From the NCBI GenBank assembly GCA_019677205.1, contig JAAMXY010002392.1:881-29830 (forward strand): DNA of 28,950 bases, written 5' to 3'. The notes beneath the pieces are model-generated. The model saw only the letters and a program-made list of their open reading frames with translations. It was not told the DNA's origin and searched no databases. Origin of the DNA: Pinguiococcus pyrenoidosus. Taxonomy: Eukaryota; Sar; Pinguiophyceae; Pinguiochrysidales; Pinguiochrysidaceae. Positions 2,090-28,950 of the stretch are shown in pieces; positions within the stretch are counted from its first letter, which is position 1; each line of letters starts with the position of its first letter. The position numbers and the translations under genes were made by a program.

Positions 2090-5269
<3,180 letters not shown>

Positions 5270-6208: not shown

Positions 6209-6962
6209 GGGCGCTTAAGCCCTCTCGTCGCCGCGGCTGCTTCTCTTGTTCGACCGCTTGACCGGCGAGCTTCTGTAGAAGACGGTTTCCATCTTTTTCA
6301 ATATATACTTTGTCTTGATCTTACAGAATATATTTTTAGTATACTAAATGAGATTGACATAGAACGGTAGTTTTGGTTCGAGGAGATGCAGTTTTCAATT
6401 TGCCAATGGGCCTTCGTAGATTCTAGAACAAGTAGCAACGGGCTTGAAAACCGACTGACGTGGGGGCGGTTCAGGACGGTGATTGGTGACCTTAGCGAAA
6501 CCTCAACCAATCCAAGCAGGAATATGCATCTTCCACTCTCGCTAAACCTTATTCGATTGCTCTTTGGCCCAAATAAGACAGACTCAACCGTTGCCCCTGG
6601 TCAGAGGAAAAGTTTTGAACTTGAGAACTTGAGAACCTCCTCATCGCTTCATTTCATCGAAAAAAAAGAGAAAAGAGAGTCTGGATGACAGACGGAGAAA
6701 ATCCACTGACCCAAACAAGTTGTTCCCGTCTCGAGACTTGTGGGAGAATGCAGATCCGAGATCCGAGATCCGAGATTCCAACAAGGGGAGAAATGCTTTA
6801 CCCCCTTGATTTCGATTCCAACCGCCCAGCGTTCCGGAGGCTCCGGAATCCGCATAGACTAGCCCCACATGCCCCAGAGTCGAAGCTGGAGCCCCCAATG
6901 CTTCTATCCTAGAGGGCTCCCATCCGTCCTTCCCTCTCCTCCTACATCTCACATCTCCCCAC
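6209..6962. promoter_or_regulatory. divergent promoter region between the Mpv17-like gene and dynein
   Basis: This is the largest divergent spacer of the window (754 bp). It contains an AT-rich block at about 6295-6365. Three CCAAT boxes fall within 110 bp: CCAAT at 6403-6407, the inverted form ATTGG at 6482-6486, and CCAAT at 6507-6511. A 7-nt tandem repeat sits at 6752-6779, and a pyrimidine-rich leader (about 6920-6960) runs up to the dynein ATG. CCAAT boxes often mark divergent promoters. No convincing RFX X-box, the usual ciliary element in animals, was seen. Confidence 0.5.
6752..6779. repeat. 7-nt tandem repeat (AGATCCG x3 plus one degenerate copy)
   Basis: AGATCCG is repeated perfectly three times (6752-6772) and followed by AGATTCC. 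It lies about 190 bp before the dynein start, in the presumed promoter or leader. It may be a simple slippage product or a clustered binding site. Confidence 0.8.
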
Positions 6963-9900
6963 ATGGATCCCCCGCCTGGCGCTTGGAAGTTCCCCCCGTC
7001 TGCGGCGCAGAACTCCCGCTGCGACGCCGGGACCATGGACGAGCTGCGCGCCTTCCTGGCCGCGCGAGTGGACGCTCCCGACTTCCAGAGCGCAGATCTG
7101 ACCGCTCCGGAGCTGTCGGAGGCGCTGGCGGCGTTCTGCAGCGGCGCCAGCCGCGTGCTATTCGCCTATGTTAAAGTGCCACCACCACTGACGCCGCGTG
7201 CGCACGCGTACGAAGATGACGGGCCTCCAAAACCTGCGGCGTTCGTCACCAGCGACGCCAGCGTGCTGGCGGCCGACGCACCGACGCACTTGTGGTTCTT
7301 CGTGCGCACCGCTGCCGAAGGGACTGCGGCGCTCTCCGACGTGTCCTATGGCTCTCTCCGCGCCGCCACGCTGGACTCGCTCCTACGCCGCATGCAGAGC
7401 GTGTTTGGCCCGCTGCTGCTGCGCGGCTCCTTTGGCCTGGACAGCGCGCGCAAGGACTTCGCGCAGCACTTCCACAAGTTCATGGCGGCGCTCACGGAGG
7501 CCAGTAACCGCGCGGCGGGCAAGACGGTGCTGTATCTGCCGCCTGATGCGGTGGACGCCGCCGACCCTGCGGCGGTCAAGGACGTGGTGCAGCAGCTGGA
7601 GAGCATCGTGATCCAGTGGACCCGCCAGATCAAGCAGGTGGTGAACAACCACGACAACCTGCTCAACGCCGAGAACGCCGGCCCCATCGACGAGATCAGC
7701 TACTGGCGCCGGCGCACGGTGGACCTCAGTGGGATCAGCGCGCAGCTCCAGCGTCCCGATGTGCAGCAGGTGCTGACGCTGCTGGAGCAGGCCAACTCGT
7801 CCTACCTCGTGGCCTTCCACACCCTGGCCAAGCGGGTTCACGAAGGCCACGCCGAGGCGGAAGACAACCTGACCTTCTTGGAAGCCATCTTGACGCCGTG
7901 TCGGGAGCTGGCGCAAGCGCAGCCTGCGCAGATCCCGGGGATTCTGCCGCAGCTGCTGAACTCGGTGCGCTTGATCTGGCAGCACTCGCGCTGCTACAAC
8001 ACCGTGGAGCGCCTGACGTCGCTGCTGCGCAAGATCAGCAACGAGATCATCGCGCGCTGTCGCAAGCAGATCACTCTCAGGGACATCTTCGACGGAGACG
8101 TCGAGGCCAGCATGCGGCCGCTGGAGCAGGGGATCGCCTGCGGCGTGTTTTGGAAGCGCCTGTTCCGCCTCACCGTGGCCGCCATCGACAGCACGCAGGC
8201 GCCACCGGCGCAGCGATGGCACTTCGACGAAGCGTCCGTCTTCGCACAGGTGGAAGCCTTCGTGCAGCGCTGCCGAGAGCTGCTGGAGGTCTGCGCCGGT
8301 CAGATGCAGTTCGCGCGCAAGGGCGGCGCGAGCGGGGGACAGGCGGGACCGCTGCCGCACTTCGGCGGTACGAGGGGCCACGAGCTGCGCAAGACGCTGC
8401 TGGACATCGAGCGCAGCTTCGAGGCGCAGATCCAGCGCCTGCGGCGCCTGGACTATGACATCTTGGACGTGAAGACGTCGCGCTGGCATGACGACATCGA
8501 GCTGTTCAAGAGCGCCGTGAAGGACCTGGACGTGCGCTACTGCAACGTCATCAGCACGAGCTTCGACGGCGTGGCCCGCATCCGCGACGCCGTGCTGCTG
8601 CTGCAGATCTTCTTCGGCCTGAGCAAGCGAGACGCCATCGTGCGCTGCGTGGAGAAGAAGGCCGCGGAGGTCTACGCGCTCTTCCGCACGCAGGTGGAGC
8701 ACCGCCGCTTCGAGTTCGACAGCCGCAAGAGGGCGCCGCCGCTGCGGCCATCGGAGCCGCAGTTCGCAGGCTCCGCCCTGTGGGCCAGCAGCCTCGGAGC
8801 GCTGGAGGAGGACAGCTGGCAGGCCATCCAGAGCTCGTCGCTACCTTTCCGAGGTCGCGAGTATGACGATGCGGAAGCCGCGTACCATGCGTTCATCGCG
8901 GCGTTGAACGACTTCAAAGAGGCGCGCTACAAAGCCTGGGTCGACCAGGTGTCCGACTGGGACCAGCACAGTGTGAAGGAGAAGCTGGACGCGCACCTCA
9001 TGCGTCGCGCGACCCCGGAAGACGAGCGGCACTTTGGCGCTGGCAAGTTGAAGGCCGGCTTCTTGCTCTGCAACTTTGACGAGGAGCTGCTGGCGCTGTT
9101 TGCGGAGGTGCAGTATTGGGAGAAGTTCCACGGCGAGTTCAGTATTCCCTATGCCGCGCACGACGTATGTAACCAGAAGGAGAAGCTGCGGATCACGCGC
9201 GAGAACGTCATGCTGGTGGTGCAGGCCTACAACGACATCCTGGCCGCGCTCAGCAAGGAGGAGCGCCGCCTCTTCGCCGACCAAGTGCGCAAGCTGGACC
9301 GCCGCATCAACCAGGGCGTCAACAAGTTGAGCTGGGCTTCGCGCGGCGTCGTGGAGCACTACGTGCGAGACTGCTTGGTGCAGTGCGAGAAGACGCACGC
9401 CATGGTCAAGGGCTTCCAAGCCGCGCTGACCGCTGTCGCAGCGCAGTGCGGCGTCATCGCCAACACGCTGCTCATCAACCTAGAGAAGAACGTGCTGGAC
9501 AGCATCGAAACCTTCGGCGCCAAGCAAGAGGCGCACGTGGAATCGGCGCGAGGTGCGCTGGTCAGGGCGGTCGACAACATCCGAGAGACCCTGCTCGAGG
9601 TCTTCGAGGACTTCAAGGACGGCAGCAGCGAGGTGCGTCGCGAGTGGCGCAACCTCATCTTTGACAAGGACCGTCGTCTGGAGACCTCGCTGCGCCTGGC
9701 GGTCAAGCGCAGCTTGCAAGAGCTGTCGCGCGCCATCAACGGTGACGCCAAGACTGAGCCACAGGCCATCTTTAAGGTGCAGGTGGCGCTGGAAGGCACC
9801 GCTGTGGACTACCAACCCACCATGGTCCACGTGACCCACGTGGTGGGCGTGGTGGCCAAAGAGCTCATCGGCGCCGTGAAGCCGGTACCGAGGCTGCGCG

Positions 9901-12900
9901 AGGCCCTTCTGGTTGACGCCGCTTCTGCTGCGCCGCCCGCGACGGCGGATGGGTTCTATCACATCATCTCCAACGAGGACGACACCCTGCGCATCGTCGT
10001 CGCCATCATGAACGGCATGACGTCGGCGGCGACGGAGCTCCAGAAGTACTTGAGCTACTGGGACAAGTACAAGCCGCTTTGGGACGTCGATAAGGATGCG
10101 TACATGCGGCGCTACGCCAAGACCCCGCGGCCGCTCAGCGTGGTCAAGCAGGACATCGAGCAGCGGCGCGAGCAGCAGAACGAGATCGCCGCGGAGGAGA
10201 GCAGCCACGTGATCGACTTCATCCACATCGACTGCACCGGGCTCAAGCGCCGCTTGGGAGAGCACTGCACCGAGTGGCAGACGCGCTTCTCGCAGCTGCT
10301 GAACCAGAAGGCCAGGGCGGACCTCCAGAGCGTCCACGACATGTTCGAGCGTAACACGCAGAAGCTGCTCAAGCTGCCCACGGGTCTTGACGATCTCAGC
10401 GACAAGGTGCACACGCTGGACAACCTCAAGGCCACGCGCGAAGACATCGAGGAGAGCTTTGGTCCCATCCGCGACAAGTACGACGCGCTGGATGGCTTCG
10501 GCGTCCAACTCACTCCCGAGGAGACGGAGATGCGGCAGCAGCTGCAGAGCCGCTGGGAGAGCTTCCAGGAGACCATGGAGAGGGCGGAGAAGGCGCTGCA
10601 GAAGAGCCGCGTGAACATGAAGAGGGACCTGGAGAGCAGCATTGCCGACGTCACCGAGAAGGCCAAGAAGCTGGCCCAGGACGCCGCCGCCGGCCTGCCG
10701 TTCTCGGGCCGGCTCTCCTGCTCAGAGGCGATGCACGTTGTGGACAAGTACCAAGAGCACTGCGACGCGATGCGCCGCCAGGAACAGGCGCTCAAGCCGG
10801 GCCTCGACTTGTTCGGCCTGCCCAGTCCCGACACGGCTGGCGTCGCCAAGCTGGAGAGAGACTTGGGCTTGTTGCGCCAGGTGTGGGGAGTGACGCAGGA
10901 GTGGGATGACGCCTGGCAGGGCTGGAAGACCGGCGTCTTTTCGCGCCTGGACGTGGAGCAGATGGAAACGGACGCCGCGGTGTTCAACAAGCGCGTGCAG
11001 AAGCTGGGCAGAGACGTGAAGAAGTGGAACGTGTGGGACGCCATCCGCTCGATGATCGACCGGTTCCGAGCCACGCTGCCGCTCATCCAGGACTTGAAGA
11101 ACCCGGCGCTGCGCGAGAGGCACTGGGTGGCGCTGCGGCAGGAGATCGAGACCGACTTTGATCCCACCAGCGACGACTTCACCATGGACAAGGTGTTCGA
11201 GTTGGAGCTGTACAACTACGCTGAGAGCATCGGCGAGTTGAGCGCCAACGCCAACAAGGAGCTTAACATCGAGAGCAAGTTGGCGCAGATCTCGGCGCGC
11301 TGGGAGGGTATCACCATCGACATCGCGCCGTACAAGGATGTGTACTTCAAGGTCCGTAGCACCGAGGACTTGTTCCAGACGCTGGAGGACGACTCGGTGG
11401 AAGTGTCCGGAATGAAGGCATCCAAGTTCTACACATCCTTCGCGACGCAGGTCGACGCCTGGGAGGAGACGCTGAACCTCGTGGCCGAGGTGGTGGAGAT
11501 GATCCTCGCCGTCCAGCGCAAGTGGATGTATCTGGAGAGCATCTTCATGGCGTCGGAGGACATCTGCAAGCAGCTGCCCGAAGAGTCCAACCTGTTCAAC
11601 GACGTGAACAGCGGCTTCTGCAGCTGCATGGCCCTCATCCAGGACGATCCGCGCGCCAAGGACGCCTGCCGTCGCGAAGGTGCGCTGAGCGACTTCTCGC
11701 AGATGGACCAGAAGCTGGATCGCATTCAGAAGAGCTTGGACCAGTACTTGGAGACGAAGCGCATGATCTTTCCACGCTTCTACTTCGTGTCCGACGACGA
11801 CCTGCTGGAGGTGCTGGGCCAGTCCAAGGACCCCACGCAGGTGCAGAAGCACATCAAGAAGTGCTTCGAGGGCATCAAGAGCCTCGAGATCCTGGCGCCC
11901 TTCGCGCAGCTCAACAAGACCTACGAGGCCGCTGCCATGATCGCCCCCGACGGCGAGCGAGCCGCCTTCGTCAGCAACGTCGTTCTGGACGGCGCAGTGG
12001 AGATGTGGCTGCTCGAGGTGGAGAAGGCCATGCAGCTGGGCTTGCAGAAGCTGCTCCATGCCAGCACGCAAAGCTACCGCGGCAAGAAGGAGAGGTGGAT
12101 CAAGGAGTACCAAGGCCAATTGCTCATCACCACGGGCGCCATCCAGTGGACGGCGGATTGCCACAAGGCGCTCACGGCCATGAGCAACGGCACGAAGAAC
12201 GCCATGCGGCAAGTGAAGAGGAAGCAAGTGAGCTACCTCAACAAGCTCACCGACATGGTCCGCGGCCAGTTGACGAAGATTGAGCGCAAGAAGCTCGTGG
12301 CGCTGATCACCATGGAGATCCACAATCGAGACGTGATCGAGCGCGTTATCAAGGCCGGCTGCTCCAGCACGCAGGATTTCGAGTGGCTCTCGCAGCTGCG
12401 CTTCCTCTACGAGAAGGACAAGGGCCAGTTCGGCCTGTGCCACGTGCGCCAGACCAATTCCGTCCTGGAGTACTCCTACGAGTATCAGGGGAACAACGGG
12501 CGTCTGGTCGTGACGCCCCTCACGGACCGCTGCGTGCTCACTCTCATCACGGCGATGTACCTGCACCGCGGTGGGAATCCGCTGGGGCCGGCCGGGACCG
12601 GCAAGACGGAGACCGTGAAGGATCTCGGGAAGAACCTAGCCAAGTACGTCGTGGTGATCAACTGCAGCGACGGAATGGACTACAAGAGCGTTGGGCGCAT
12701 CTTCTCCGGCCTCGTGCAGTCCGGCAGCTGGGGCTGCTTCGATGAATTCAATCGCATCAAGATCGAGGTGATCTCCGTGGTCGCCATGCAGGTGCTTTCC
12801 ATCATGAACGCGCTGACCGCCAAGCTGGAGTCCTTCGACTTCATGGGCCAAGTCATCAGGTGCCACAGCGGCTGCGGCATCTTCATCACCATGAACCCGG

Positions 12901-15900
12901 GCTACGCCGGACGGACGGAGCTGCCGGACAACCTCAAGGCCCTCATGCGGCCCGTGGCGATGATGGTCCCCGACCTTGCGATGATTGCGGAGGTCATCCT
13001 AGCGGCGGAGGGATTCCGCGACGCGCGGAACCTTGCGAAGAAGACCATCACGCTGTACAACCTGATGATTCAGCAGCTGTCCAAGCAGGACCACTACGAC
13101 TACGGCCTCCGGAACTTGAAGGCGGTCTTGACCATGGCTGGGTCTCTCAAGCGCGCGGACCCCGACATGAACGAGGAGGCGATCTTGATGAGGGCGCTCC
13201 GGGACATGAACTTGCCCAAGTTCATCAAGGACGACGAACGGCTCTTTCGGCTCCTGCTCGGCGATCTTTTCCCGTCGCTGGAGCTCACCATGTCCGTCTA
13301 CGAGACGCTGCAGCGCGCTGTGGAGGCTGAGCTGGAGCGCGAGGGCCTGCAGAGGCACCCGTTCATCATCGGGAAGATCATCCAGCTGTACGACTCCAAG
13401 GCCACCCGGCACTGCAACATGCTGGTGGGGAAGACCTACGCCGGCAAGAGCGTGGCGTGGAAGGCGCTGAAAGCCGCCAAGACCACGCTGAGCAAGACCG
13501 AGAGCGACAGCGACGGGCAATACGTACCGGTCTTCAGCTACGTGATCAACTCCAAGAGCGTCACTCTCAACGAGCTCTATGGCGCGTACGACCTGGCCAC
13601 CTTCGAGTGGGCCGACGGCATTCTGAGCACCATCTTCAAGAGCTGCAGCATGAACGAGAAGGCGCTGGAGAGCTGGATCATGTTCGACGGCCCCGTGGAC
13701 GCCATGTGGATCGAGAGCATGAACAGCGTCATGGACGACAATCGCATCTTGACCCTCATCAACGGCGACCGCATCCCGCTCACCAACTCCATGTCGCTGC
13801 TGTTCGAGGTCGAGGATCTGTCTGTGGCGTCTCCAGCGACGGTGTCCCGCGCCGGCATGATCTACATGGACGTGGACGAGCTCGGGTGGCAGCCGCTGGT
13901 GGCCTCGTGGCTAGCCGAAACGTTTGGCAGCTATGCCGAAGCCGCTGAGCTGCGAACCTTCCACAATGGCTTGTTCAGCAAGTACGTCGAGCCCGTGCTG
14001 GCGGAGAAGACGCGGAGGTGCTCGAGCCCCATTCCCGTCCCCGACGTGTGCGCGATCCGCACGCTCACGCGCTTGTACGACAGCTTCTGCACCGCCGAGA
14101 ACGGCGTCGACTTCTCCAAGGGTCTGCAGCCGGTGCAAAGCATGGCGGAGAAGTGGTTCGTCTTCTCCCTAATCTGGTCCGTCATGGCGGCTCTGGACGA
14201 GACCAGCCGTGGCATCATGGACGCCTTCCTTCGGGACATCGAGGCGCAGTTCCCGCCCACGGGCTCCGTTTATGACTATGTGGTGAACGCCGCCAAGGGT
14301 GACTGGGAGCACTGGGACGTGCGCGTCCCGAGCTTTCGCCCTCGGCCCCACATGGCGTTCCACGAGATGCTAGTGCCGACGGTGGATACCACGCGGCACT
14401 CGTTCATCGTGTCGACGCTCATGATGCGCAAGTTCGCAGTGCTGCTGGTCGGCGCGCCCGGCACAGGCAAGACGGTGCTGGCAGAGCAGCTGCTGGCGTC
14501 GCTGCCCGAGAGCCACAGCAGCCTCACCATGAACTTCTCCTCGTCCACCGACAGCGGCGCGACGCAGGGAGTGATCGAGGGCGCCATGGAGAAGCGCTCC
14601 AAAGACAAGCTGGGACCGGTGGGCGGCACGCAGATGATCCTGTTCATCGACGACTTTAACCTGCCCAAGAAGACCAGCGCCGAGTCGCCCTTCCAGCCGC
14701 CGTTGGAGCTGCTGCGACTGTGGATGGACTATGGCGGCTGGTACGACCGCGTCAAGTGCTCGTGGCGCTTCTTGCTCGACTCGCAGCTGCTGGTGGCCAT
14801 GGCGCCGCCCAGCGGCGGCCGAGAGGTTATCAGTGCGCGCACGCAAAGCCGTTTCGACGTGCTCAACCTGGTGTTCCCCGCGGACGCACAGGTGCACCGC
14901 ATCTTCGAGAGCATCTTGGCGCCGTGCCTGGCCCAGTTCGAGAGCGACATCAAGCATCTGGCGGCGAAGCTGCCCGTGGCCACGCTCAAGCTGTATCGCG
15001 AGGTGGTGAAGACGTTCTTGCCCACGCCCAGCAAGGCGCAATACCTGTTCAATATCCGCGACGTGGCCAGGATCATCCAAGGCGTGCGCCAGGTGGCGGC
15101 GCAGCTCTACGACAGCGTTGACGACGTGCTGCGTCTCTGGGTGCATGAGAGCATGCGCGCCATCTCCGACCGCTTTTTGCTTGACGACGCGCAGGACGAG
15201 GCCAACTTCGTGGAGATGCTGGGGTCGCTCTTGAAGTCCCAGTTCGACGCGTCCTGGGCGGCGCTGATGGACGACTGCGACGACCCGAGCCAGGGGCCCA
15301 TCTTTGGCAGCTTCCTGCGCGACGACGCAGCCTACGCGGAGTGCCGGGACTTCGGCACCTTGAAGGCGCTCTTGGAGGAGAAGTTGGACGAGTACAACTT
15401 GGAGCCCAAGTTGCTGCCCATGGAGCTGGTGCTGTTCAAGGACGCCATTCGCCACGTCTGCCGCATCCATCGCGTGCTGATGCTACCCCGTGCCAACCTC
15501 ATGCTCATTGGCGTGGGCGGCAGCGGGCGCCAGTCGCTCACGAGGTTGGCGTCCTTTGTTGCGGAGTACGACACCTTCAGCATCGAGATCAGCAAGCAGT
15601 ACCGCAGCGTCGAGTTCCGCGACGACCTCAAGCGTCTGCTGCTCCAAGCCGGCGGCAACGCCAGGCCCACCACGTTTCTGTTCAACGACCAGCAGATCAA
15701 GGAGCCTAGTTTCTTGGAAGACGTGGCCAACGTGCTGAGCGCCGGCATGGTGCCCAACCTCTTCGCCAAGGACGAGCTACCTGGTGTCTACGACGCCGTG
15801 CGGAAGGACGCGAAGAAGGCCGGCGTGGACGAGACACCAGCGGCGCTGTGGAAGTTCTTCCTCGGCCGCGTGCGCGACAACTTGCATGTGGTACTATGCA

Positions 15901-18900
15901 TGAGTCCCGTGGGCGCGGCCCTCCGCACGCGCATAATGATGTACCCATCGTTGGTGAACTGCACCACGATCGACTGGTTCCAGACGTGGCCAGCGGAGGC
16001 ATTGCAGGAAGTGGCGATCAAGTTCCTCACAGAGGATCTACTGAGCGACGCCGACACCAAGCTGCGCGTGGCGCGCGTTTTCTCGCAGATCCACCTGGAC
16101 GCCATCCGCCTGTCGCGTCGCATGCTGAGCGAGCTCAAGCGCCACAACTACGTCACGCCCACGCACTACCTGGAGCTGGTCAGGGGCTACGGCACACTGC
16201 TCCGCGAGAAGCGTCGCGAGCTGTGCGTGGCAAAGGAGAAGCTGGCCAGCGGCCTGGCCAAGCTGGAGGACGGGCGCGCGCAGGTGGAGACCATGTCGGA
16301 GCAGCTGGCCAAGAAGCAGCAGGTGGTGGCGCAGGCGCAGAAGAAGGCCGAGGAGTTGCTGCTAGAGATTGTTGCCGAGCGCCGCGTGGCCGACGAGCAA
16401 CGCAACTCGGTGGAAGCCGAGGGCGCCAAGATCGCCAAGGACGAGCAGGCCTGCCTGGCCATCGCCGCCGACGCGGAAGCCGACTTGAACGTGGCGCTGC
16501 CGGCCCTGCAGAAGGCCATGGGCGAGGTGGACAAGCTGGAGAAGGGCGACATCTCCGAGGTCAAAGCCTACAGCAAGCCGCACGTGTTGGTGGAGAAAGT
16601 GCTGGCGGCGGTGATGATCCTGTTCGGCAAGTCGATCGACTGGGCGACGGCCAAGAAGACGATCAGCGAGGCCAACTTCTTGCAGCGCGTCAAGGGATAC
16701 GACAAGGACAACGTGCCCGACGCCAAGATCAACAAGATCAAGAAGTACGTGAGCATGGATGACTTCCAGCCCACAGAGGTGGCCAAAGTGTCCCGCGCCG
16801 CCGCCGCGCTGTGCACCTGGGTCCACGCCATCTTCGTTTACGCCAATGTCGCCAAAGACGTGGCGCCCAAACGCGCACGCCTGAAGGACGCGCAGCGCAC
16901 GCTGGCGCAGAAGCAGGCAGCACTGCGCGACGCTCAGGCACAGCTTCAGGAAGTGCAGCAAAAGCTGGACTCCTTGGAGCTGCGGCACCGCGCCAGCGTG
17001 GACCAGAAGAACCAGCTGCGCGACGAGGCGGAGAGCTTGGAAGACAAGCTGGCGCGCGCGGAGAAGCTGATCAGCGGCCTCGGCGGCGAGTTCGAGCGCT
17101 GGCAAGTATCCATCCAAACCTTCGATACGCGAATCAGCGCTTTGCCCGGCGACGTTCTGGTGGCCTGCGGCGTCCTCACGTACACCGGGCCCTTCGACAC
17201 CGTGTACCGCGACGCCATCGTTCCAGGCTGGCTCCGAAGCTTGCAAGAGCAGGCGCTGCCGTGCAGCCAGCACTTTCGCTTCAGCAGCTTCCTGGCCAGA
17301 GCGACGGACGTGCGGACCTGGAACTTGCAGGGCCTGCCCAGCGATGACTTCTCCACCGAGAACGGCGTCATCGTGACCCGCGGAGCGCGCTGGCCCCTCA
17401 TGATCGACCCGCAGGCGCAGGCCAACAAGTGGGTGCGGCGCATGGAGGGCTCCGAGCTCCGAGTCATCGACCTCAAGATGAAAGACTTCCTACGCGAAGT
17501 GGAGAGCGCCATCACCTACGGCCAGCCCGTGCTGCTGCAAGACGTGCTGGAGGAGCTGGATCCCGCGCTGGAGCCCGTGTTGGCCAAGGCCGTCATCCGC
17601 GTGGGCAACCGAGAAGTTCTGCGCCTGGGAGATAAGGAACTGGACTATTCGGCGGACTTCCGCCTGTACATCACCACCAAGCTGGGGAACCCGCACTACA
17701 CGCCGGAGGTGAGCACCAAGGCCAACATCGTGAACTTCTCCGTGAAGCAGCAGGGTCTGGAGGCGCAGCTGCTGGCCAACGTGGTGCTGGAGGAGCAGCC
17801 CGAGCTGGAGAGCCAAAAGTCCGAGCTCACCGTGCGCGTGGCCGATGGCAAGAAGAAGCTGGAAGAGCTGGAGGACGACATTCTCAGGCTCCTGAGCGAG
17901 TCCACCGGTTCCCTTCTGGATGATGTGGAGCTCATCAAGACGCTCCAGGTGTCCAAGACCACCTCCGAGGAGGTGACCAAGCAGCTGCAGGTGGCCGAGG
18001 ATACCGAGCGCTTCATCGATGTCGCGAGGGAAGGGTATCGCGCGGCCGCGATTCGCGCCAGCTTGACGTACTTTGTGCTCCACGACCTGTCGCGCGTGGA
18101 TCCCATGTACCAGTTCAGCCTGGACGCGTACGTGGAGCTGTTCAACCAGTCCATCCGCGCGTCCCGCGCCAGCAGCAGCGACAACGTAGCGGAGCGCTGC
18201 AACAACATCAACGCGTTTCACACGCTGGCCATCTACCGCTACGTGTGTCGCGGCTTGTTCGAACGCCACAAGATCCTGTTCAGCCTGCAGCTGTGCTTCA
18301 AGATCCTGCAGAACGACGCCAAGCTGCCCCGGGACGAATTCGACTTCTTCTGCTTCGGCGGCGGCCTGGTGGACCGCGACGCGCAGCGCGCCAACCCGTG
18401 CGCCGACTGGCTGGACGAGGCCGCCTGGGACGGCGTGACCGAGCTGGACAAGCTGGGCGCCATGACCGGCCTGGCGTCGTCCTTCGAGCAGATCCCACGC
18501 GACTGGAAGGCGTGGTTCTTGAGCGCCGCGCCCGAGGAGACGCGCCTGCCGGCGGACTGGGAGAACAAGTGCAGCAATTTGCAGAAGATGTGCATCCTTC
18601 GCGCGCTGCGTGTGGACCGCTGCCTCTTCGCCGCCGCCAATTTTGTCAAGGCCAACATGGGGCCCAACTTCGTGGACCCGCCGGCCTTCGACTTGGGGGC
18701 CATCTACACTACATCCACACGCTACTCGCCGCTGGTGTTCGTGCTGTCGCCCGGCGTGGACCCCACGGCCAACGTGTTCACGCTGGCCAAGCAGCTGGAC
18801 GTGCAGGTGGACAACTGTGCGCTGGGCCAAGGCCAGGCACCCACCGCCGTGCGACTGCTCAGCAAAGGCCGCAAGATGGGCAACTGGGTGTTCCTGGCCA

Positions 18901-20569
18901 ACTGTCATCTCATGCTCAGCTGGATGCCCACGCTCGAGAAGATCATCGAGGCGTATGTGGCGGCGCAGGACGCACACGAGAAGTACCGTCTCTGGTTGTC
19001 GTCCACGCCGCATCCGCACTTCCCGATCAGTATCTTGCAGAGGGGTATCAAGATGACGACGGAGCCGCCGCGCGGCCTGCGCGCCAACCTGCTCAAGCTG
19101 TACAACGTGGTGACGGACGAGCAGTTCGCGCGCTGCGGGCAGCAGGCCAAGTACAAGAAGCTGCTGTTCGCGCTGTGCTGGTTCCACGCCATCCTGCTGG
19201 AGCGCCGCAAGTTCAAGAGCCTGGGCTTCAACATTCCGTACGACTTTAACGAGTCCGACTTCGCCATCTGCCACGACCTCATCATCGTCTTCCTGGACGA
19301 ATACCCCGACGCCACGCCGTTCGACGCCATGCGCTATCTCATCGCGGAGGCCAACTACGGCGGCCGCGTGACCGACAGCTGGGACCGCCGTCTGGTCAAC
19401 GTGTACATCAACCAGTTCATCTGCGAAGACGCCATCGGCGTCCCGAAGTACGCGCTGAGTGAGCGGCCCGAGTACTTCATTCCGCCCGACGCCGACATCG
19501 ACGGCTACAAGGCCTACGTTTCCGAGCTGGAGCAGACCGACCACCCCGGCGCCTTCGGCCAGCATCCCAATGCCGACATTGCGTCGCAGAAGGAAGATTC
19601 CCTGAACTTGCTCTTCACCATCATCAGCCTCCAGCCCAAGACGGTGACGGCCGGCGAGGAGAGTCCGATGGAGAAAGTGGCGAAGCAAGCCACGGTGCTC
19701 CAGGACGCGGTGCCGGACACCTTCGACGAGCGGAAGCTTCGCGCCGACTTGGCGGCTAGGACCGATCCGGACCCCTTGAAGACCGTGCTTCTTCAGGAGG
19801 TCGATCGCTACAACCGCTTGCTGCACTCGATCCTGTCGTCCTTGTCCGATCTCCGGCTGGCGGCGCAAGGCCTGGTGGTGATGACCGCGGCGCTCGAGGA
19901 GGTCATGAACGCGTTCTTGGAGCTCAAGGTGCCGGCGCTTTGGTCGAAGTGCTACCCTTCGCTCAAGCCGCTGGGCCCGTGGATGAGGGACCTGAACACG
20001 CGCTGCAGTCAGCTGCACACCTGGGCGGGGAAGGGCGTGCCAGCCACCATGTGGCTCCCGGGCCTCACCTACCCGACGAGCTACCTCACCGCGCTTCTGC
20101 AGACGTCGGCTCGGAAGAATGGGATCGCCATCGATACCCTCAGCTGGGAATTCCCCATCGTCCCGCAGGAGGCCAGCAGCATCTCACAGCCGCCAAAGGA
20201 CGGCGCGTACGTCACGGGCTTGTTCCTGGAGGGAGCTAGGTGGGAGATGGACCCCGGCTGCCTGAGCGAGCCGAGTCCCATGGAGCTGCACTCGGCGATG
20301 CCTGTGATCCACTTCAAGCCCGCGGAAATGAGAAAGAAAGCGGCCAAAGGGTTCTACAGCTGCCCGTTGTATTTGTATCAGGTGAGGGAAGGGCGCGAAG
20401 CAAGACGGAGACTTGGGAAGGAGGCTCACAAGCGAGGTTTTCGCAGGTGCGCACGGGGACACGAGAGCGACCGTCGTACGTCTGTACCATCGACTTGCGC
20501 AGCGGCGATCACCCGTCAGACTTTTGGGTGAAGCGCGGCACCGCGTTGCTGCTTTCGCTCAATGTGTAG
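6963..20569 (+). CDS. DNAH2: axonemal inner-arm dynein heavy chain, DNAH2 / I1(f) 1-beta type
   Basis: This is the motor subunit of a two-headed inner dynein arm (I1/f, beta chain), which controls ciliary waveform. Exon 1 (6963-20381) holds 4473 uninterrupted codons. A 65-nt intron (GTGAGG...TCGCAG) leads to exon 2 (20447-20569), giving 4513 aa. Landmarks are the N-terminal tail and linker (to about residue 1800), AAA1 P-loop GPAGTGKT (1875-1882) with Walker B CFDEFN (1925-1930), AAA2 GKTYAGKS (2156-2163), AAA3 GAPGTGKT (2497-2504) and AAA4 GVGGSGR (2850-2856). The antiparallel stalk with the microtubule-binding tip lies at about 3080-3385, followed by AAA5, AAA6 and the C-terminal domain. 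The DNAH2 subtype is judged from C-terminal segments such as RRKFKSLGFNIPY, FGQHPNADIASQ, MRKKAAKGFYSCPLY and IDLRSG, then the terminal FWVKRGTALLLSL, which exists only after splicing. An alternative start (7035, better Kozak context) would remove 24 residues. Confidence 0.93.
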
Positions 20570-20735: not shown

Positions 20736-21899
20736 CTACAGGCCATTCTCCTGCTTGAACACCTCGTAGGCTTCGTTGAGGTGACTGCAGATCAGTCCGG
20801 CGATCACCTGATGCTCCAGGCTGAGGTTGTACCGTGTGATTTTGTCGGCGTGGACTACCGTCATGGCCTTCAGATATGCCACGCGAACCTGCCGCACACG
20901 CCAGAGAAAGGCTCTCAGTGGGCTGCAAGTCACTTCAGCAGGAGCTCAACCTCGAGCATCACGCATCTGGCGTACCTTCTTCGGCTCCAGGAGGTCGCCG
21001 ATGCTGTAGCCCTTCCATTTGGCGCCAGGGTAAAGCACTTGATCGAGCGTGGACAGCAGATTCATCAGCGGCTTCGGCTTTCCATTCTGCGTCGCCCAGT
21101 TGCGGATTCTCGGCCGGTGCCTCATGCGCAGCTCCTCCTCCTCCGCATCGTCCCCGCCCGCCGCCCCCCTCTTCGCTTCCGCCTGCGCCTCCACCGGGGT
21201 CTTCTGGCCCATCATGAAGTCCAGGTCACTCGCGAAGCCCGGCGCCGCCGCCGGCGCCGCGGCCGGCGACGCCGGGCCCGGCGCGACGATGTCATCGTCA
21301 TCGTCGATGTCGTCCTGCACCACTCCCGGCCTCGGTGGCGTCGGCGTCGCAGACGCAGCGGCCGGCGCGCTCTTCTGGTCAGGGGCAAACGCCATGAAGT
21401 CCGGCGACTGGGGCGAGGCCGCTGGCGGCGCCGGCGGCGGCGCTCTCCTCGGCGGCGCCGTGGGGCCGTTGGGCGCCGGCGCTTGCTTGGCTTGTTGACG
21501 CTGCTGCTGCTGCAGCTGCTGGCGCTGGCGCTGGCGCTGCTTCTGGGTGACATCTGCCAAGGCTGCGCGGTAGCGCAGCACGGCGCTCTTGTCCACCGCC
21601 TTCTTCTTCAAGCTGGTGGGCTGCGGCTCTCCGGCGTTCATGGTGCTCAAGCGCAGCACTTGTGCGCACACGCGGCCGCGGTACTTGGGAAGGACCTCCT
21701 TGGGGTCCACCACGTCCTTCCAGACATAGCCGCTCCTCTGGTCGTCGACTTGGAAGCGGAAGTGGAGACCCTCTTGCGCTGTAGGAAAGTGGAGTAAGAA
21801 GTCGCCTAAGGTGCTCACGGGCTTCTCGAACGCGTTGGGCTCCTCCAGCGACTCGCCGCGGCTGCCGTGGTAGTAGTACAGGCACATGGTACTCGCCAT
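20736..21899 (-). CDS. DIX-domain protein with C-terminal auxilin-type J-domain (HAD instead of HPD)
   Basis: The 358-aa product has two exons, 21899-20976 and 20888-20736, joined in phase 0 across an 87-nt intron (GTACGC...CGGCAG). Residues about 4-84 resemble a DIX domain, the head-to-tail polymerising module of Dishevelled, Axin and SOSEKI proteins: CLYYYHG, STLGDF, FRFQVDD, then LPKYRGRV. A Gln/Arg-rich run (about 105-130) and a long Pro/Ala/Asp linker with DFM-containing pieces follow. Residues about 271-358 match the auxilin/GAK J-domain: LMNLLSTLDQVLYPGAKWKG, a DLLEPKKVR helix made by the splice, YLKAMTVV, and a last helix ending LNEAYEVFKQENGL. Auxilins recruit Hsc70 to strip clathrin from vesicles. 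The Hsp70-activating HPD motif reads HAD (321-323), with Ala for Pro, so activity may be changed. The ATG at 21899 has a strong context (AAAATGG). The stop is 166 bp from the convergent dynein stop. Confidence 0.8.
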
Positions 21900-22444
21900 T
21901 TTGCGCCACAAGAAAGCGCGGATTCAAAGAAGTTGGAAGCACCAAAAACGGCGGCGTTGGCGAAACTCTCTCGCGAGCTGGGGAAGCGCACCGCGTATGG
22001 AGCTGTGTTAGAGCGGAGGTGGCAGATTCTCGGAACGGATGGTGCGTTGTAAGGCGATAGCAAGGAAAGCTATCTTCTTCGAGACGCGTCATTGGATGTG
22101 TGGATGACTGACACCCCAGAAAAAGGCCTTATTATCATTCTTACTAGCATGAAAACAATATCTTATATCTTATTTCTCTTTCCAATGTCCCAGATCAGAA
22201 ATCAATTTTGATAAACGGTGATATTCAGAGTATGAAATCTGATTATTATAACCAAAATTACAAAAATAACTATCGAAAATACTAAAAGTAAACATCTCTA
22301 GGTAACGTTACCCAAGCATTTTCCGATATCTGTCCTATCGGCTTCCCGCCATTTTTTCATCTTCACTTCCGTGCAAAGAGCGCAATCGGGATCCCAAAGC
22401 AACGCAACATTCATGGCCAGATCTCCACTTCTTTCCCCACGTGG
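21900..22444. promoter_or_regulatory. divergent promoter region between the DIX-J gene and TilS
   Basis: This 545-bp region has a strongly AT-rich core (about 22110-22320) between GC-rich flanks. E2F-like matches lie at both edges: TTTTGCGCCA at 21899-21908 overlapping the DIX-J start, TTGGCGAAA at 21957-21965, and TTCCCGCCATTTTTT at 22343-22357 on the TilS side. CCAAT elements are at 22091-22095 (inverted) and 22182-22186. No gene was recognised inside. Confidence 0.5.
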
Positions 22445-23713
22445 ATGAGGCTGCAGCTCAGGACCGCCATTTGGTTGCTAACCTGCGCCGCTCGCGCGGC
22501 CCTGCCGCCCCGGAGCCTACTGCGCGCGACGCCGCGCGCCTCCAGATGGCACAGCAGTACAAAAGCGGCGCTGTTGCCGCGCTTCGAAGCGGGGCTGCAG
22601 AGATGTGGCGTGCCACTTGACGGGAGCGGTACCGTGGTGCTGTCTGTCAGCGGCGGAGTGGACAGCATGGCGCTTTTTCACCTGCTGCGGCGCTCCGAGG
22701 GGATCGAGCTGGTCGTGGTGCACTTCAACCACGGCTTTCGCGCGGCTTCAGCCGAGGAGGAGTCCTTCGTGCAGCGCATCTGCGAGGGCGAAGCGGTGCC
22801 ATGCCATGTGGTCCGCGCAGACGCGGTCGACGGCAACGCGCTGCAGCTGGACCAGCACGCCGCCGGCCAGCGAGGAGTGCAGGCGGGAAGCCGCCGGTGG
22901 CGGCGGCAGCATCTCTTCCGCATTTCCAAGGAAGTGCAGGAGCAGGCGCCGGATCGTCAGGTCTTTGTTGCCGCTGCGCACCACCAGGACGATCAGATGG
23001 AGACTCTGCTGCTGAAGATCCTGCGAGGCGTGCATCTCACCAACGTGCACGGCATGCGATACCGGACGCCTTTGACGGCTAGCGACGCCGCCAACCAAGG
23101 CGATGCACGCAGCGCGGACAGCTTCCCTCTCGTACGGCCGCTTCTCGGGGTGAGGAAGCAGGAGCTGGTTGAGTTCATGGAGGAGGCCGGCTTCGAGTGG
23201 CGCGAGGATGAGTCGAATCATGACACGGACAGCGGCTACCTGCGAAACCGAATACGGAACGAGCTCCTGCCGCTGCTCCGCGACATCTCGCCGGGTGGCG
23301 ACCAGGGTCTGCAGAAGAGACTGCAGAACATGTGCGCCCAGTCCGATGAGCTCAAGGAGGCTAGAGACATCTTCCTGAGCAGCAAGCACGACCTGATCGA
23401 GGACGCCGTGTCCGGCCGCGGCGTCGACGTGCGCGAGCTGCTAGACCTTCCCAGGTTCGCATCCACCGCCGTCCTCCAGTACCTCCTTGGCGCAGCAAGG
23501 CCCGGCCGCTTTGGAGAGGGGGCCGTGTCCGGTGCCGGAGAGCCACCCAAGAGCTACGATCCGCCCAGCGTGGTCGGCTACGAGAAGGCCATCGAACTGC
23601 TGGATGAAGTCCAGGTCCATCAGCTGCGGAATGCGCACAGGTGGGCCATAGATGTGGGTAAGGGCCTGCGCATTCGAGTTGCCAAGGGCCGAGTGTACGC
23701 GGATCACGGGTGA
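22445..23713 (+). CDS. tilS: tRNA(Ile)-lysidine synthase-like protein, nuclear, organelle-targeted
   Basis: TilS converts the wobble C of tRNA-Ile(CAU) to lysidine with ATP and lysine, so that the tRNA reads AUA and is charged with Ile instead of Met. In eukaryotes it acts only in plastids or mitochondria. The intronless 422-aa product has the N-type PP-loop SGGVDS (69-74), HFNHGFR (93-99), AHHQDDQMET (178-187), RPLLGVRKQEL, DESNHDTDSGYLRNRIRNEL and a degenerate C-terminal part, slightly shorter than typical bacterial forms. Residues 1-60 are an added leader: a hydrophobic segment (TAIWLLTCAARA, 8-19) and then a basic, Ser/Arg-rich stretch. This could be a signal plus transit peptide for a complex plastid, but a mitochondrial presequence is also possible. 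The stop is 23 bp from the convergent PEX14 stop. Confidence 0.85.
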   Translation: MRLQLRTAIWLLTCAARAALPPRSLLRATPRASRWHSSTKAALLPRFEAGLQRCGVPLDGSGTVVLSVSGGVDSMALFHLLRRSEGIELVVVHFNHGFRAASAEEESFVQRICEGEAVPCHVVRADAVDGNALQLDQHAAGQRGVQAGSRRWRRQHLFRISKEVQEQAPDRQVFVAAAHHQDDQMETLLLKILRGVHLTNVHGMRYRTPLTASDAANQGDARSADSFPLVRPLLGVRKQELVEFMEEAGFEWREDESNHDTDSGYLRNRIRNELLPLLRDISPGGDQGLQKRLQNMCAQSDELKEARDIFLSSKHDLIEDAVSGRGVDVRELLDLPRFASTAVLQYLLGAARPGRFGEGAVSGAGEPPKSYDPPSVVGYEKAIELLDEVQVHQLRNAHRWAIDVGKGLRIRVAKGRVYADHG

Positions 23714-23736: not shown

Positions 23737-24876
23737 CTATTCCGTCGTGGCTACGGGCTTCGCCGCAGAGCCCTCGGCCGAGCTCTCCTCCGGAGCCTCT
23801 TGCATTTTGGCTTCGCGCGCGAATTCTTTCAAAGAGTCTGCAGCGTGCGCGAGGAGCTCATCTATGCCATCCTTGTCCTCCAGCTGGTCCTGCGCCCACG
23901 TCCACTCGAACGAGCTGCCCCGGTCTTCAAAGCCGCAAGCGAGCATCAGAGGAATCGAGCCCTTGAGGGGCACGAGATACTTCTCAAACGACTCCGTGGT
24001 CTTTGGGAATCGGCGGTAGCGCGGAATGCCGAGCGTGAGATTCTTGATGAGCTTCCCCAGGAAGGGTGCGGTCTTCACCAGCTGGCTCGGCGCATTGCTC
24101 TGTTTGACGGCCTCCAACGCCTTGTCGATCTCCTTCCTCCGAGACGAAGGCTCTCCCCCACGCCCCTCTACCACCTCTAGGCTTTCCCCTTCCTCGGACT
24201 GCGAGCTGCCAAGCTTCTCTAACGAGCTCTTGATCGCTTTGATCTCCCTCCGAAGCTCCTGCGCCGCGCTGACGGTGTGAAGCGCCTCCACTTGAGCCAC
24301 AAGCCTCGACACGATGCTATTGTTGTTGCGCAGGAGCTCGTCCTGGCGGGACACTTCTCTCGTCAACCGCGCCACCGCAACGCACAGCTTGTCCACGTCG
24401 CTGTCCTCCCCGGTGAGCTCAAGCTCCGCTTCAAGAGCCCCGTCCCCGCCGCTGGCGCCGCTCTCAAGCGCCTCGAGGCGCCGCTGAAGCCGGATTTCTC
24501 GCAACTCCTCCGCGCGCAGGCTCTCTTCCTCCTTTGCGGCCCGGTAGTTGGCCACCGCGGCGTGGATGGCGAAAGCAGCCAAGGCGAACCCCCCAAACAC
24601 CGAAGACGGCAGCAGAAGGCGCTGCCACAGCGGAGGCTGCGGCGGGAACAACAGCGGTGGGGGAGGCGGTCGGCCACCAAAGCCTTCAGAGAAGCTGTCG
24701 GGGGCGCTTGAGACCACTTGAGCGCCGCCGACCCGCCGAAGCGCCTCGTCAATCTCCGATTTCTGTAGTCCTTTGGACTCCAAAAACTGCAGCTTCTGCT
24801 TCAGAGGCGAATTCTGCACGTTCGGGTGGCGCAGAAACTTCTCCCCGGCTGCGACGCGCGCCTCGTCGAGCGACAT
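23737..24876 (-). CDS. PEX14: peroxin-14 with a C-terminal PUB-like domain
   Basis: PEX14 is the membrane docking and pore partner for the peroxisomal import receptor PEX5. The 379-aa intronless product begins with a textbook Pex14 N-domain (residues 4-50: FLRHPNV, SPLKQKLQFLESKGL, then EIDEALRRVG), followed by a Pro-rich stretch (69-82). One membrane segment lies at about 91-110, and coiled coil follows to about 222. Unlike usual PEX14, residues about 249-355 resemble a PUB domain, the fold of PNGase, UBXD1 and HOIP that binds the C-terminal tail of Cdc48/p97: LGKLIKNLTLGIPRYRRF, SFEKYLVPLKGS and LMLACGF align with the nilknP-kyR / N-aF / Ga-eLL-GF pattern. Direct recruitment of cytosolic Cdc48 to the peroxisome is an inference. 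The start at 24876 opens with MSLDEAR in good context. The frame is open further upstream to 25065, but that part covers promoter-like sequence. Confidence 0.85.
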   Translation of the reverse strand: MSLDEARVAAGEKFLRHPNVQNSPLKQKLQFLESKGLQKSEIDEALRRVGGAQVVSSAPDSFSEGFGGRPPPPPLLFPPQPPLWQRLLLPSSVFGGFALAAFAIHAAVANYRAAKEEESLRAEELREIRLQRRLEALESGASGGDGALEAELELTGEDSDVDKLCVAVARLTREVSRQDELLRNNNSIVSRLVAQVEALHTVSAAQELRREIKAIKSSLEKLGSSQSEEGESLEVVEGRGGEPSSRRKEIDKALEAVKQSNAPSQLVKTAPFLGKLIKNLTLGIPRYRRFPKTTESFEKYLVPLKGSIPLMLACGFEDRGSSFEWTWAQDQLEDKDGIDELLAHAADSLKEFAREAKMQEAPEESSAEGSAAKPVATTE

Positions 24877-25149
24877 GGCGCGAACGTCGAGGCCGCAGAT
24901 CTCAACGGTCGATTTGAAAAAAGCGCGCCAAAACAAGGTTGGAAAAGGGCGCCAATCGCGGGACAGATGCCCAAAAGAGAAAAAGGACAGATACCGACTT
25001 TGAATTTGTGCATCTGTCTCAGAATCCGTTAGAAGACTGAGAGAAACGCCACAATTTGGCGCCATTTTTCCGAATTTACGCTCGAAAGTGCCTTCTTCTG
25101 CACTCTGTGAGACATAGAAAGAGCAGGTGACAAGAAAATCGGGATTTCA
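24877..25149. promoter_or_regulatory. divergent promoter region between PEX14 and FAM177 with three E2F-like motifs
   Basis: The spacer is 273 bp. GCGCGCCAAAAC (24923-24934; reverse complement contains TTTGGCGC), GGGCGCCAAT (24947-24956, which also contains a CCAAT box) and TTTGGCGCCA (25055-25064) all resemble the E2F consensus with A/T flanks. With two genes diverging from so short a spacer, sharing of these elements is likely. Binding is not shown. Confidence 0.5.
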
Positions 25150-26188: not shown

Positions 26189-28605
26189 CATCTCTGCCAC
26201 TCTGCGCCTCTGCAGCGGTTTGATACAGAAAGAGACGTACCCGAGCAGCAATGGTCTCATCTGGCTGTAGATCTCGATGCACTCGTCCGTGGCATCCGCC
26301 AGGCGGTCAAAGACATCGCGAACGGGTGTCCAGCAGCCTGTGTGGGCAAGCAAACGGACGATTGAGCTTATGGATCACATTTCCGAGCAGCATTGTGCGC
26401 ACGCACATCTGCAGAATCCGGAAGCGGCACAGTCACAGATATCCGACGAGCTCTGCTGATGGAAGCGCGGTTCCGCGAATCTCGTCGCATGGCATCTTCT
26501 TATGCAGGCCATGCACACGAGCCGCAGCTTGAGGGAAGGGACGTCGTACACCGTGCGCCATGCGCCTCTGTAGAGCGCATCGTCCTCATCTGCAGGCTTG
26601 GTGTTGTAGCAGTAGCTAAGGATCGATACCAGCATCATCGTCAAGCTTGCGCATCCGTTGAGGGAAACCAAAGACGAGCCCTCACCGAAGTTTGGGATCG
26701 ACTCTGGGAGGCGGACAGTCTTGATCCTCTGCACCGGGCTGGCCGGGCAGTACGAGGTTCGGCGTGTCGAGGTAGTCGGCGTTGAGGCCTATGCCAAATG
26801 GGTGAGATTCCCGTGCTTGGTGCGGGGCATCACCAGATCTGCACCTTTGGCTGTCATGTCCTTCTTCAAGATGTCGTAGACCAGCATGCCCTCCTGCACC
26901 AAAGTGTCGAAGTAGGCTTTGTAGCTCGGCTCGTCGCGCACTGCGGGGGGAAACGAGGTTGATTCAAGACCGGAAAGAAAGCGCTGTCCTGGTGGTCGCG
27001 GCACTCAACCTTTTCGAGCAGTCCCGGTCGTGATGACGATGCTGTGGCGTTTTCCCGCAGCAATGCTGCAGCATCGGGCCCGGGCCATTGGCGCCAAAGG
27101 CGCCGGCTACGGAATGGTCCGGGCAATAGCGTGAAAGGGCGCCGGAATCGCTGGAGCTGTCCGTCGGGCCTACCTTGAGCCGAACGTGCTTGTCGCCGAG
27201 GCCGAGTTCTCCGTAGTGGTTGAAGCCCCACACCCACACACCTTCCTGAGACCCGTCCTTCGCCGCGGACATGTGGCGTCGAGGCTCTTGGCTGTTTTCC
27301 CCTTGGGACGCCTCTGCACTCTCTTCATCCGCAGCGTCAGCCCCAGTGTAGATCAACGCCATGCTGTGATTGTGGCCTGCTACAATCTGCACGAGTCGGT
27401 GAGTACCAGCACCGCGTTCTTCCGCTGACGACAAAGGAAGGACAAGGCCTTACCTTGTCCACGCCGCGGATGGATGGAATGACCATGGGCTGTCCGCAGT
27501 CCCAGTTCTTGCCGTAGCCGACGGCGCCGTAGGTCCCGCGGCCCCAACCAACGAGCTGCTGCGACTTGGTCAGCATTGCAAGGGTGTGGAAGCCTCCGGC
27601 GGCAACCTCCTGAATCTCCAGGCGGAGGCTCTTGCAGACGCGCCGCAGCGAGATCACCTCCTGTGGTCGATGCCGCGCTGCAAAGTGGGCGCCATTGCCC
27701 AGCCGCTCGTCGGCAGCGTTGCCCCATGTGAAGACTGTCTGAAATGGCCGCTGGCCGCCCGGCTCGCGCACTCTCACCACCGCAGCGCAGTGCTCTGCGC
27801 CGGCGCTGACGCCCAAAACCTCCTCGTTGCGGGCGAAGGGGATCTCTCCCGGAAGGGTTTGCCATCTGCCGCCTTCGCCATGGGCGCAGTGCTGCGCTAC
27901 CATCAGCTTTTCTCCGCGACCAAGCTGGCCGTGGTTGTCTCGCCCCCAGGAAAACACTCTCCGAGTGGCTGCGACATACGCCACGACGTGCCAATCGCCT
28001 GCGCTGATGGAGGTGACGTGCTGTCTGGCCAGCGGCGTCATGCGCTTGCGGCGTCTTCTGGATCGTCCGCTGCTCTGCTCATCGCCCTTCAGCTCCACCT
28101 TGCTCACGCAGACCGGGAAGTACCGCGACGCGCTGTCTCCGAGGCCCAAGACACCGTAGCGGCCACTGCCCCAGGCGAACACGTCTCCCACGGCGCTGCG
28201 AGCAAAGGAAGAGGCCTCCGAGGCTGCCACTTCCACGACATACACCCAGCGGTCCAACAGCTCCCCTTGCACGGGCTGCGGATGCGGCGTGGGCCTCAAG
28301 TCTGCGGGGCCTACGCCGAGCTGCCCATCTTCATTGCAGCCGCAAGCCAACACGTTGCCGTTTGCAAGTGCGAAGAGACTGTGTCTACCGCCGGCGGCGG
28401 CTGTGCGCACGCTCATGGCGTCGGAGCGGCCAAGGCTGAAGCAAGGATGGGGTAGACTCTGCGGTACCGAGGCGACTCCAGCGTCGACACCACCTTCTTC
28501 TTCTTGGCCTTCTGTTGGATCTGCAGGCGCTGCGAGGCCTAGGCGGCCATCGGCGCTCCAGCCGAAGGTAAAGACGTTCGCAAGGCGGTCCGAGGCGTCC
28601 GTCAT
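25757..28605 (-). CDS. seven-bladed RCC1 protein with C-terminal Cys/His-rich UBR-like tail (nine exons)
   Basis: Exons are 28605-27454, 27386-27174, 27106-27010, 26940-26845, 26788-26686, 26615-26407, 26337-26241, 26130-26024 and 25923-25757. Intron lengths are 67, 67, 69, 56, 70, 69, 110 and 100 nt. All phases agree and give 746 aa. Residues about 10-487 form an RCC1 beta-propeller with seven blade motifs (FGWSADGRLG at 14, CGCNEDGQLG at 88, WGSGRYGVLG at 145, and others to WGFNHYGELG at 434). Splicing restores the last blade (HVRLKPAP, IAAGKRHSIVITTG). A basic cluster RSRRRRKRM (181-189) could be a nuclear signal. The tail is not a family I can name. It has a Cys/His-rich patch (CMACIRRCH 588-596, CDC 614-616, CRC 622-624) resembling part of a UBR-type zinc box, then acidic and Ser-rich stretches. 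RCC1 propellers bind Ran, chromatin or ubiquitin-system partners. Donor choice for introns 4 and 6 is least certain. Confidence 0.75.
26161..26188. repeat. (AG)14 microsatellite in intron 7 of the RCC1 gene
   Basis: Fourteen perfect AG dinucleotides lie on the + strand. On the gene's sense strand they read (CT)14, about 20 bases before the 3' splice site at 26132-26131, so the repeat forms the polypyrimidine tract. Length variation is likely and could affect splicing. Confidence 0.9.
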
Positions 28606-28950
28606 CGTTGTTCTGAGAACGGCAGGCAACGTGGACAGTACCGGTCTCCCTTGCGAGACCTCCTCAGGTTGTCTTGTTCCTGCACAAGTCGTACAGGATG
28701 ACAGCTCACACAGAGAAGTGCGGCGGAGAAGATCGAGAAGATTTTTTCTTTCACCGGAGAGCGCTGCAGAGAGGGCCAGAGTCCGGCGTCGAAAAGCATC
28801 TGGGGCCGGGATCACCTTCCTCCCTTTCCCTTAACACGGCTGTGTACAGAACACATGTGGCATATATCATACTGTATGTATTCATGTACAGTATCCCTAG
28901 CCTAATAGTGACCAGCCTGATAGTGTCCCAAGCCGAATAGTGACCGAAGC
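28606..28950. other. 5' flank of the RCC1 gene to the window edge
   Basis: The first 210 bases are open in frame with the RCC1 protein but contain no ATG, so they are probably 5' leader. The remainder becomes AT-richer (about 28835-28900), consistent with a promoter core like those of the other genes. A short repeat begins at 28899. No gene was recognised. Confidence 0.45.
28899..28945. repeat. tandem repeat of about 15-17 nt running off the window end
   Basis: Three near-identical copies of AGCCTAATAGTGACC occur at 28899-28913, 28914-28928 and 28931-28945, with one to three differences. The last bases (GAAGC) may begin a fourth copy outside the window, so the true array length is unknown. 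Confidence 0.75.

What the first reader, a model, noticed from the sequence alone, without database searches (positions are those of the whole stretch)
20736..21899. DIX polymerisation domain fused to an auxilin-type J-domain
The N-terminal 80 residues carry DIX hallmarks (STLGDF, FRFQVDD, LPKYRGRV) and the spliced C-terminus is a clear auxilin/GAK J-domain. DIX domains self-assemble head to tail in Wnt and plant polarity proteins; auxilin J-domains recruit Hsc70 to clathrin. I know of no described protein combining them. A polymerising uncoating co-chaperone, or a polarity scaffold that recruits Hsp70, would be a new system in protists.
Basis: partly seen in the sequence, partly recalled or inferred. 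Interest (0 to 1): 0.85.

Follow-up and report, generated by a model that had tools for sequence, protein, structure and literature searches.

The report
Algal DIX–auxilin fusion, altered HPD motif
This algal gene joins a self-assembling DIX domain to a clathrin-uncoating type J-domain; that pairing was published in 2025 as the DARTAGNAN family, but here the three-residue switch that J-domains use on Hsp70 is altered, and altered differently in a near relative.

The parts
20976..21899 (-). exon 1 of the DIX + auxilin-J gene (308 codons, ATG at 21899)
   Evidence: open frame, relative P0123 aligned from residue 1
20889..20975 (-). intron, 87 nt, GT...AG, phase 0, contains an in-frame stop
   Evidence: P0123 is continuous across the junction
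20736..20888 (-). exon 2 (50 codons and stop): second half of the J-domain
21645..21899 (-). DIX domain, residues 1-85, with W60-K61-D62 at the place of SOK4 W83-Y84-D85
   Evidence: Pfam, PDB profile, structure; SOK4 residue numbers from passages of PMC7042713; the correspondence is by motif
21117..21644 (-). low-complexity Q/P/A linker, residues 86-261
   Evidence: sequence; the matching part of P0123 is mostly pLDDT < 50
21387..21401 (-). linker motif DFMAF (residues 167-171), counterpart of LMDFG in many relatives
   Evidence: [LF][MLV][DAE]F in 111 of 123 linkers against a mean of 1.0 (max 3) in 200 shuffles
20976..21116 (-). auxilin-type J-domain, first part (residues 262-308)
   Evidence: JAC1 E 3.4e-11
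20739..20888 (-). auxilin-type J-domain, second part (residues 309-358)
20844..20852 (-). CAC GCC GAC = H321-A322-D323, in place of the HPD motif

Best explanation
The gene is a DARTAGNAN-type protein (DIX, disordered linker, auxilin-type J) of a photosynthetic, probably ochrophyte, alga. Likely mechanism: the DIX domain links copies of the protein head to tail, and to the other DIX proteins of the cell, making a high-avidity patch; the linker (with its conserved L/F-M-D/A-F motif) and J-domain dock on clathrin coats or adaptors; in members with HPD the J-domain then switches Hsp70 on to remodel the coat. In the lineage of this gene the HPD trigger is degenerate (HAD here, HPQ in its closest found relative), so the J-domain most likely stimulates Hsp70 weakly or not at all and serves mainly as a docking or regulatory J-like module. 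Shown here: fusion, domain identities, HPD change, no second auxilin-type J found. Inferred: polymerisation, clathrin docking, loss of stimulation.
For: DIX and J are both significant by sequence, and the DIX by fold; one model of P0123 matches both auxilin J-domains and DIX structures. P0123 has the same architecture in one ORF. The published DARTAGNAN architecture is DIX + disordered region + DnaJ, and it co-purifies with ATHOS. The genome also has an ATHOS-like DIX gene, a DIX match upstream of an ELMO domain on one strand, and a clathrin-link match in a 1636-aa open frame. For fly auxilin, clathrin-binding motif plus J-domain suffice when over-expressed (PMC2391152, abstract and passages). 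HPD: 121 of 123 aligned proteins keep HPD, P0123 has HPQ, the window HAD. Window/P0123 identity is 3/13 in HPD+loop against 30/43 before helix II and 14/25 after the loop; four comparison pairs have 7-8/11 in HPD+loop. In simulations P34A misorients the H and D of HPD, and D35A and H33A block activation (PMC13012618, passages).
Against: The window keeps H and D, including the D that contacts the Hsp70 arginine; in some systems even HPD to AAA does not fully abolish stimulation (passage). Pro to Ala is one base (GCC for CCC), so a sequencing error is possible for the window, though P0123 differs independently. Only two sequences of this sub-lineage were found and the segment counts are small. 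No tree was built with the published DARTAGNAN set. The 'only auxilin-type J' claim is soft: the JAC1 query sees even this gene only at E 0.004, the search is exon by exon, and the assembly may be incomplete. The head-side motif N-A/C-F of the DIX is in only 62 of 123 proteins, partly because several relatives start inside the domain. PORTHOS, the proposed kinase partner, was not seen.
Confidence: 0.58

Rival explanations
1. Ordinary active DARTAGNAN co-chaperone: HAD still presents His and Asp to Hsp70 well enough, DIX avidity compensates, and the protein uncoats clathrin with Hsp70 as auxilin does.
For: H and D retained in the window; helix II keeps K308 and K315; no other auxilin-type J was found in an assembly that has a clathrin-link match; HPD/AAA is not fully dead in some systems.
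Against: P34A is predicted to misorient H and D; P0123 replaces the Asp with Gln; the HPD loop is the least conserved J segment between the two.
Confidence: 0.35
2. Polarity or flagellar-base scaffold of the ATHOS network in which the J-domain has no coat role.
For: ATHOS sits near the flagellar insertion in P. palmivora zoospores and co-purifies with DARTAGNAN; the neighbouring gene here is an axonemal dynein heavy chain.
Against: The J-domain is specifically auxilin-type; relatives named include Cylindrotheca and Fistulifera, pennate diatoms that (recalled) have no flagella; gene neighbourhood means little in eukaryotes.
Confidence: 0.2
3. Gene-model artefact: two neighbouring genes joined, or the intron call wrong.
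For: No RNA data; exon 1 alone stays open past the junction for 9 codons.
Against: P0123 carries both ends in one protein and aligns across the junction without a gap; most relatives held have the J-domain and a DIX-like motif in one protein (116 of 122).
Confidence: 0.02

Closest known systems
DARTAGNAN (Musketeer proteins), Kostareli et al. 2025, PMC12077222
   Same: N-terminal DIX, disordered linker, C-terminal DnaJ domain; ATHOS-like and ARAMIS-like genes in the same genome
   Different: HAD in place of HPD here; the paper's main text has no mention of HPD, auxilin or diatoms; its supplements, which may cover these, were not available to me
Auxilin / GAK / plant JAC1
   Same: auxilin-type J-domain
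   Different: no kinase or PTEN-like domain listed by Pfam at E<=1; DIX at the N-terminus; HPD altered
Dishevelled / Axin / Dixin / SOSEKI
   Same: DIX sequence and fold
   Different: no PDZ, DEP, RGS or other domain of those proteins listed by Pfam at E<=1
Pam16 / Magmas (type IV, J-like)
   Same: a J fold without HPD; Magmas cannot stimulate mtHsp70 and regulates true J-proteins (PMC8605242, passages)
   Different: unrelated, mitochondrial; used only as an analogy

Membership tests
DARTAGNAN | N-terminal DIX or DIX-like domain | tested here: met
DARTAGNAN | intrinsically disordered linker | tested here: met
   low-complexity Q/P/A sequence; most of the P0123 linker has pLDDT < 50
DARTAGNAN | C-terminal DnaJ (J) domain | tested here: met
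   auxilin/JAC1 by sequence and, for P0123, by fold; Pfam PF00226 itself does not list the window protein
DARTAGNAN | falls in the published DARTAGNAN sub-clade of the DIX tree | not tested
   the paper's table and HMM are in supplements not available here
DARTAGNAN | binds ATHOS | not testable with these tools
   only an ATHOS-like gene is seen in the genome
DIX domain | DIX sequence and ubiquitin-like b-b-a-b-b-b fold | tested here: met
DIX domain | head-to-tail polymerisation | not testable with these tools
   only the tail W-x-D motif is seen (W60, D62); SOK4 numbering
canonical J-domain protein | HPD motif | tested here: not met
   HAD at 20852-20844
auxilin/GAK | auxilin-type J-domain | tested here: met
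auxilin/GAK | PTEN-like and/or NAK kinase domain (animal forms) | tested here: not met
   one search lists only DIX and one match below its cut-off (E_Pc_C, residues 123-194 in the low-complexity linker)
auxilin/GAK | clathrin-binding motifs | tested here: inconclusive
   conserved linker motif resembles a clathrin box only loosely (recalled consensus)

The most novel reading that the evidence does not exclude
In one lineage of algae the only auxilin-type protein is a DIX-assembled J-like scaffold that has lost the Hsp70 trigger, so clathrin coats there are remodelled either without J-stimulation or with DIX avidity replacing HPD: a co-chaperone turned into a structural coat or polarity adaptor.
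Probability: 0.3. Interest if true: 0.62.

Novelty: new variant of a known kind. Interest (0 to 1): 0.42.

Why it matters
It places the DARTAGNAN architecture in a photosynthetic alga, refines the 'DnaJ' label to auxilin-type J, which is what the published GAK hypothesis needs, and offers a natural test of it: relatives with HPD against a lineage with HAD or HPQ. Relatives in pennate diatoms, which (recalled) lack flagella, also suggest that the family is not only a motility protein.

Tried and rejected
Rejected: gene-model artefact (P0123 carries both domains in one frame); a chance DIX match; 'no described protein combines them'.

Led nowhere or against: the whole-protein search was flooded by the low-complexity linker (7993 candidates scored, 3 hits). 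P0123 scans of viral and prokaryote contigs gave no relative. The DIX domains of the relatives are mostly below Pfam's reach: 2 of 32 members scanned hit PF00778 at E<=0.1 (the window and, by inference, P0123), while 25 of 32 hit DnaJ; with my own three-sequence DIX profile 25 of 123 proteins pass E<1e-3 in that small set, two of them P0123 (a row of the profile) and P0001 (the window itself). A W/Y-x-D motif is in 116 of 122; the six without it look truncated or mispredicted at the N-terminus by eye; several others start inside the DIX. No PORTHOS-like DIX-kinase was seen: PF00778 at E<=10 gives three places in the genome, and kinases were not searched. Small-subunit ribosomal RNA for taxonomy was not obtained (tool busy). 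No paper on HPD loss in DIX-J proteins appeared in the listings; that is not proof of absence.

Limits: of 351 J-domain hits only the best 120 were listed, so '121 HPD' is not a census. The genome search is exon by exon and the assembly may be incomplete. VIA-align and Foldseek rows list only top matches.

Full report
Gene and observation. The gene lies on the minus strand: exon 1 21899-20976, intron 20975-20889 (87 nt, GT...AG, in-frame stop if retained), exon 2 20888-20736 including the stop, 358 aa. It ends tail to tail with a 4557-residue open frame for an axonemal dynein heavy chain (6858-20531).

J-domain. phmmer against the PDB gives six hits at E<=1, all auxilin or JAC1 J-domains (3.4e-11 to 9.1e-9). 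Pfam's general DnaJ model does not list the window protein. Where solved auxilins read HPD the window reads H321-A322-D323.

Relatives. The first protein search, flooded by the linker, returned P0001 (the window's own unspliced frame), P0002 and P0003. A search with the P0002 J region found 351 proteins at E<=1e-6, 120 listed; the fully readable organism names are diatoms (Cylindrotheca closterium, C. fusiformis, Fistulifera solaris). A DIX-like W/Y-x-D motif is in the N-terminus of 116 of 122 proteins held then, though Pfam's DIX model reaches only 2 of 32 members scanned. A search with the window's J region found P0123, 327 aa, 57% identical over the J region, carrying a Pfam DIX domain and the J-domain in one frame; the spliced window protein and P0123 share 172 of 324 gap-free aligned residues. 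The AlphaFold2 model of P0123 (30-row alignment, mean pLDDT 60.8; ten-residue means 80-93 from residue 251 on, 66-69 in 221-250, 42-79 over the DIX) matches auxilin J-domains and DIX structures in the same Foldseek list, ten hits at E<=0.001.

HPD. In an alignment of 123 proteins (P0002-P0123 and the spliced window protein) 121 have HPD, P0123 HPQ, the window HAD (recount). Window/P0123 identity is 30/43 before helix II, 9/16 in helix II, 3/13 in the HPD loop and 14/25 after it; four comparison pairs (P0002/P0003, P0003/P0043, P0002/P0112, P0003/P0112) give 7/11, 7/11, 8/11 and 8/11 in the HPD loop. So the loop drifts while the rest stays constrained; numbers are small and the HPD set is related by descent. 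PMC13012618 (passages) reports by simulation that P34A extends helix II and misorients H33 and D35, and that D35A and H33A block the activating transition, but also cites systems where HPD/AAA is not fully dead. PMC8605242 (passages) describes Magmas, a J-like protein without HPD that cannot stimulate mtHsp70 and instead regulates J-proteins. I take weakened or lost stimulation as somewhat more likely than not.

Genome. The assembly (23.7 Mb, 768 contigs) has 29 light-harvesting matches, exon by exon; one protein's best PDB match is VCPI-6 of 8zo9 (recalled as a Nannochloropsis photosystem), pointing to an ochrophyte, not proven. DIX occurs in three places at E<=10: this gene; C115, a DIX split by an intron followed by a low-complexity tail (ATHOS-like, gene model not resolved); and C111, a DIX below the cut-off (E 0.004) upstream of an ELMO domain on the same strand, the layout of ARAMIS, not proven to be one gene. 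A clathrin-link match lies in a 1636-aa open frame. PF00226 finds 38 matches for ordinary J-domains. A P0002 J query finds only this gene (E 5e-15); a JAC1 query finds this gene at E 0.004 and an ordinary DnaJ at 0.067, so that second query is a weak control.

Linker. A motif [LF][MLV][DAE]F lies in 111 of 123 linkers against about one in shuffled linkers: DFMAF here, DLMAF in P0123, L[ML]DFG in 102 of 123. It loosely resembles a clathrin box (recalled). The mBio paper mentions linear motifs in Musketeer linkers, so I claim no novelty for it. [quoted passage not shown]

Prior art. PMC12077222 (main text read; [quoted passage not shown] The main text has no mention of HPD, auxilin or diatoms; the supplements were not seen. 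PMC7042713 (passages) shows that SAR DIX domains polymerise in vitro. Hence the architecture is known; the auxilin-type assignment and the HPD change in one sub-lineage are what this adds.

Verdict. Observation confirmed, interpretation partly supported, novelty modest: a DARTAGNAN member with a degenerate HPD motif.

Noticed in passing
6858-20531 (+): Single open frame of 4557 aa for an axonemal dynein heavy chain (Pfam matches from DHC_N1 to Dynein_C, and the DYH2-5-8 coiled-coil model): a flagellate stage is likely, and no intron is needed over 13.7 kb.
   Followed up: partly
2333-5269 (+): CDC48-type AAA ATPase with a hydrophobic, signal-peptide-like N-terminus; such targeted CDC48 copies recall the SELMA import system of red complex plastids (recalled, not tested).
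   Followed up: partly
22292-23713 (+): PP-loop ATPase (PF01171; TilS-like, recalled) open frame next to the DIX-J gene.
   Followed up: partly
23737-25146 (-), 27337-28830 (-), 965-2200 (-): Pex14 N-terminal domain protein; RCC1-repeat protein; THH1/TOM1/TOM3-domain membrane protein.
   Followed up: partly
G000 C111:71038-72450 (L013): DIX-like match (E 0.004) upstream of an ELMO domain on the same strand: probable ARAMIS-type gene, not shown to be one transcript.
   Followed up: partly
G000 C115:20319-20450 (L001, L003): Second DIX gene, split by an intron, with a low-complexity tail holding DPF-like peptides by eye: ATHOS-like.
   Followed up: partly
relatives P0002-P0122: DIX-like + auxilin-J proteins occur in diatoms, including pennates that (recalled) lack flagella, which weakens a purely motility-linked role for the family.
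   Followed up: partly
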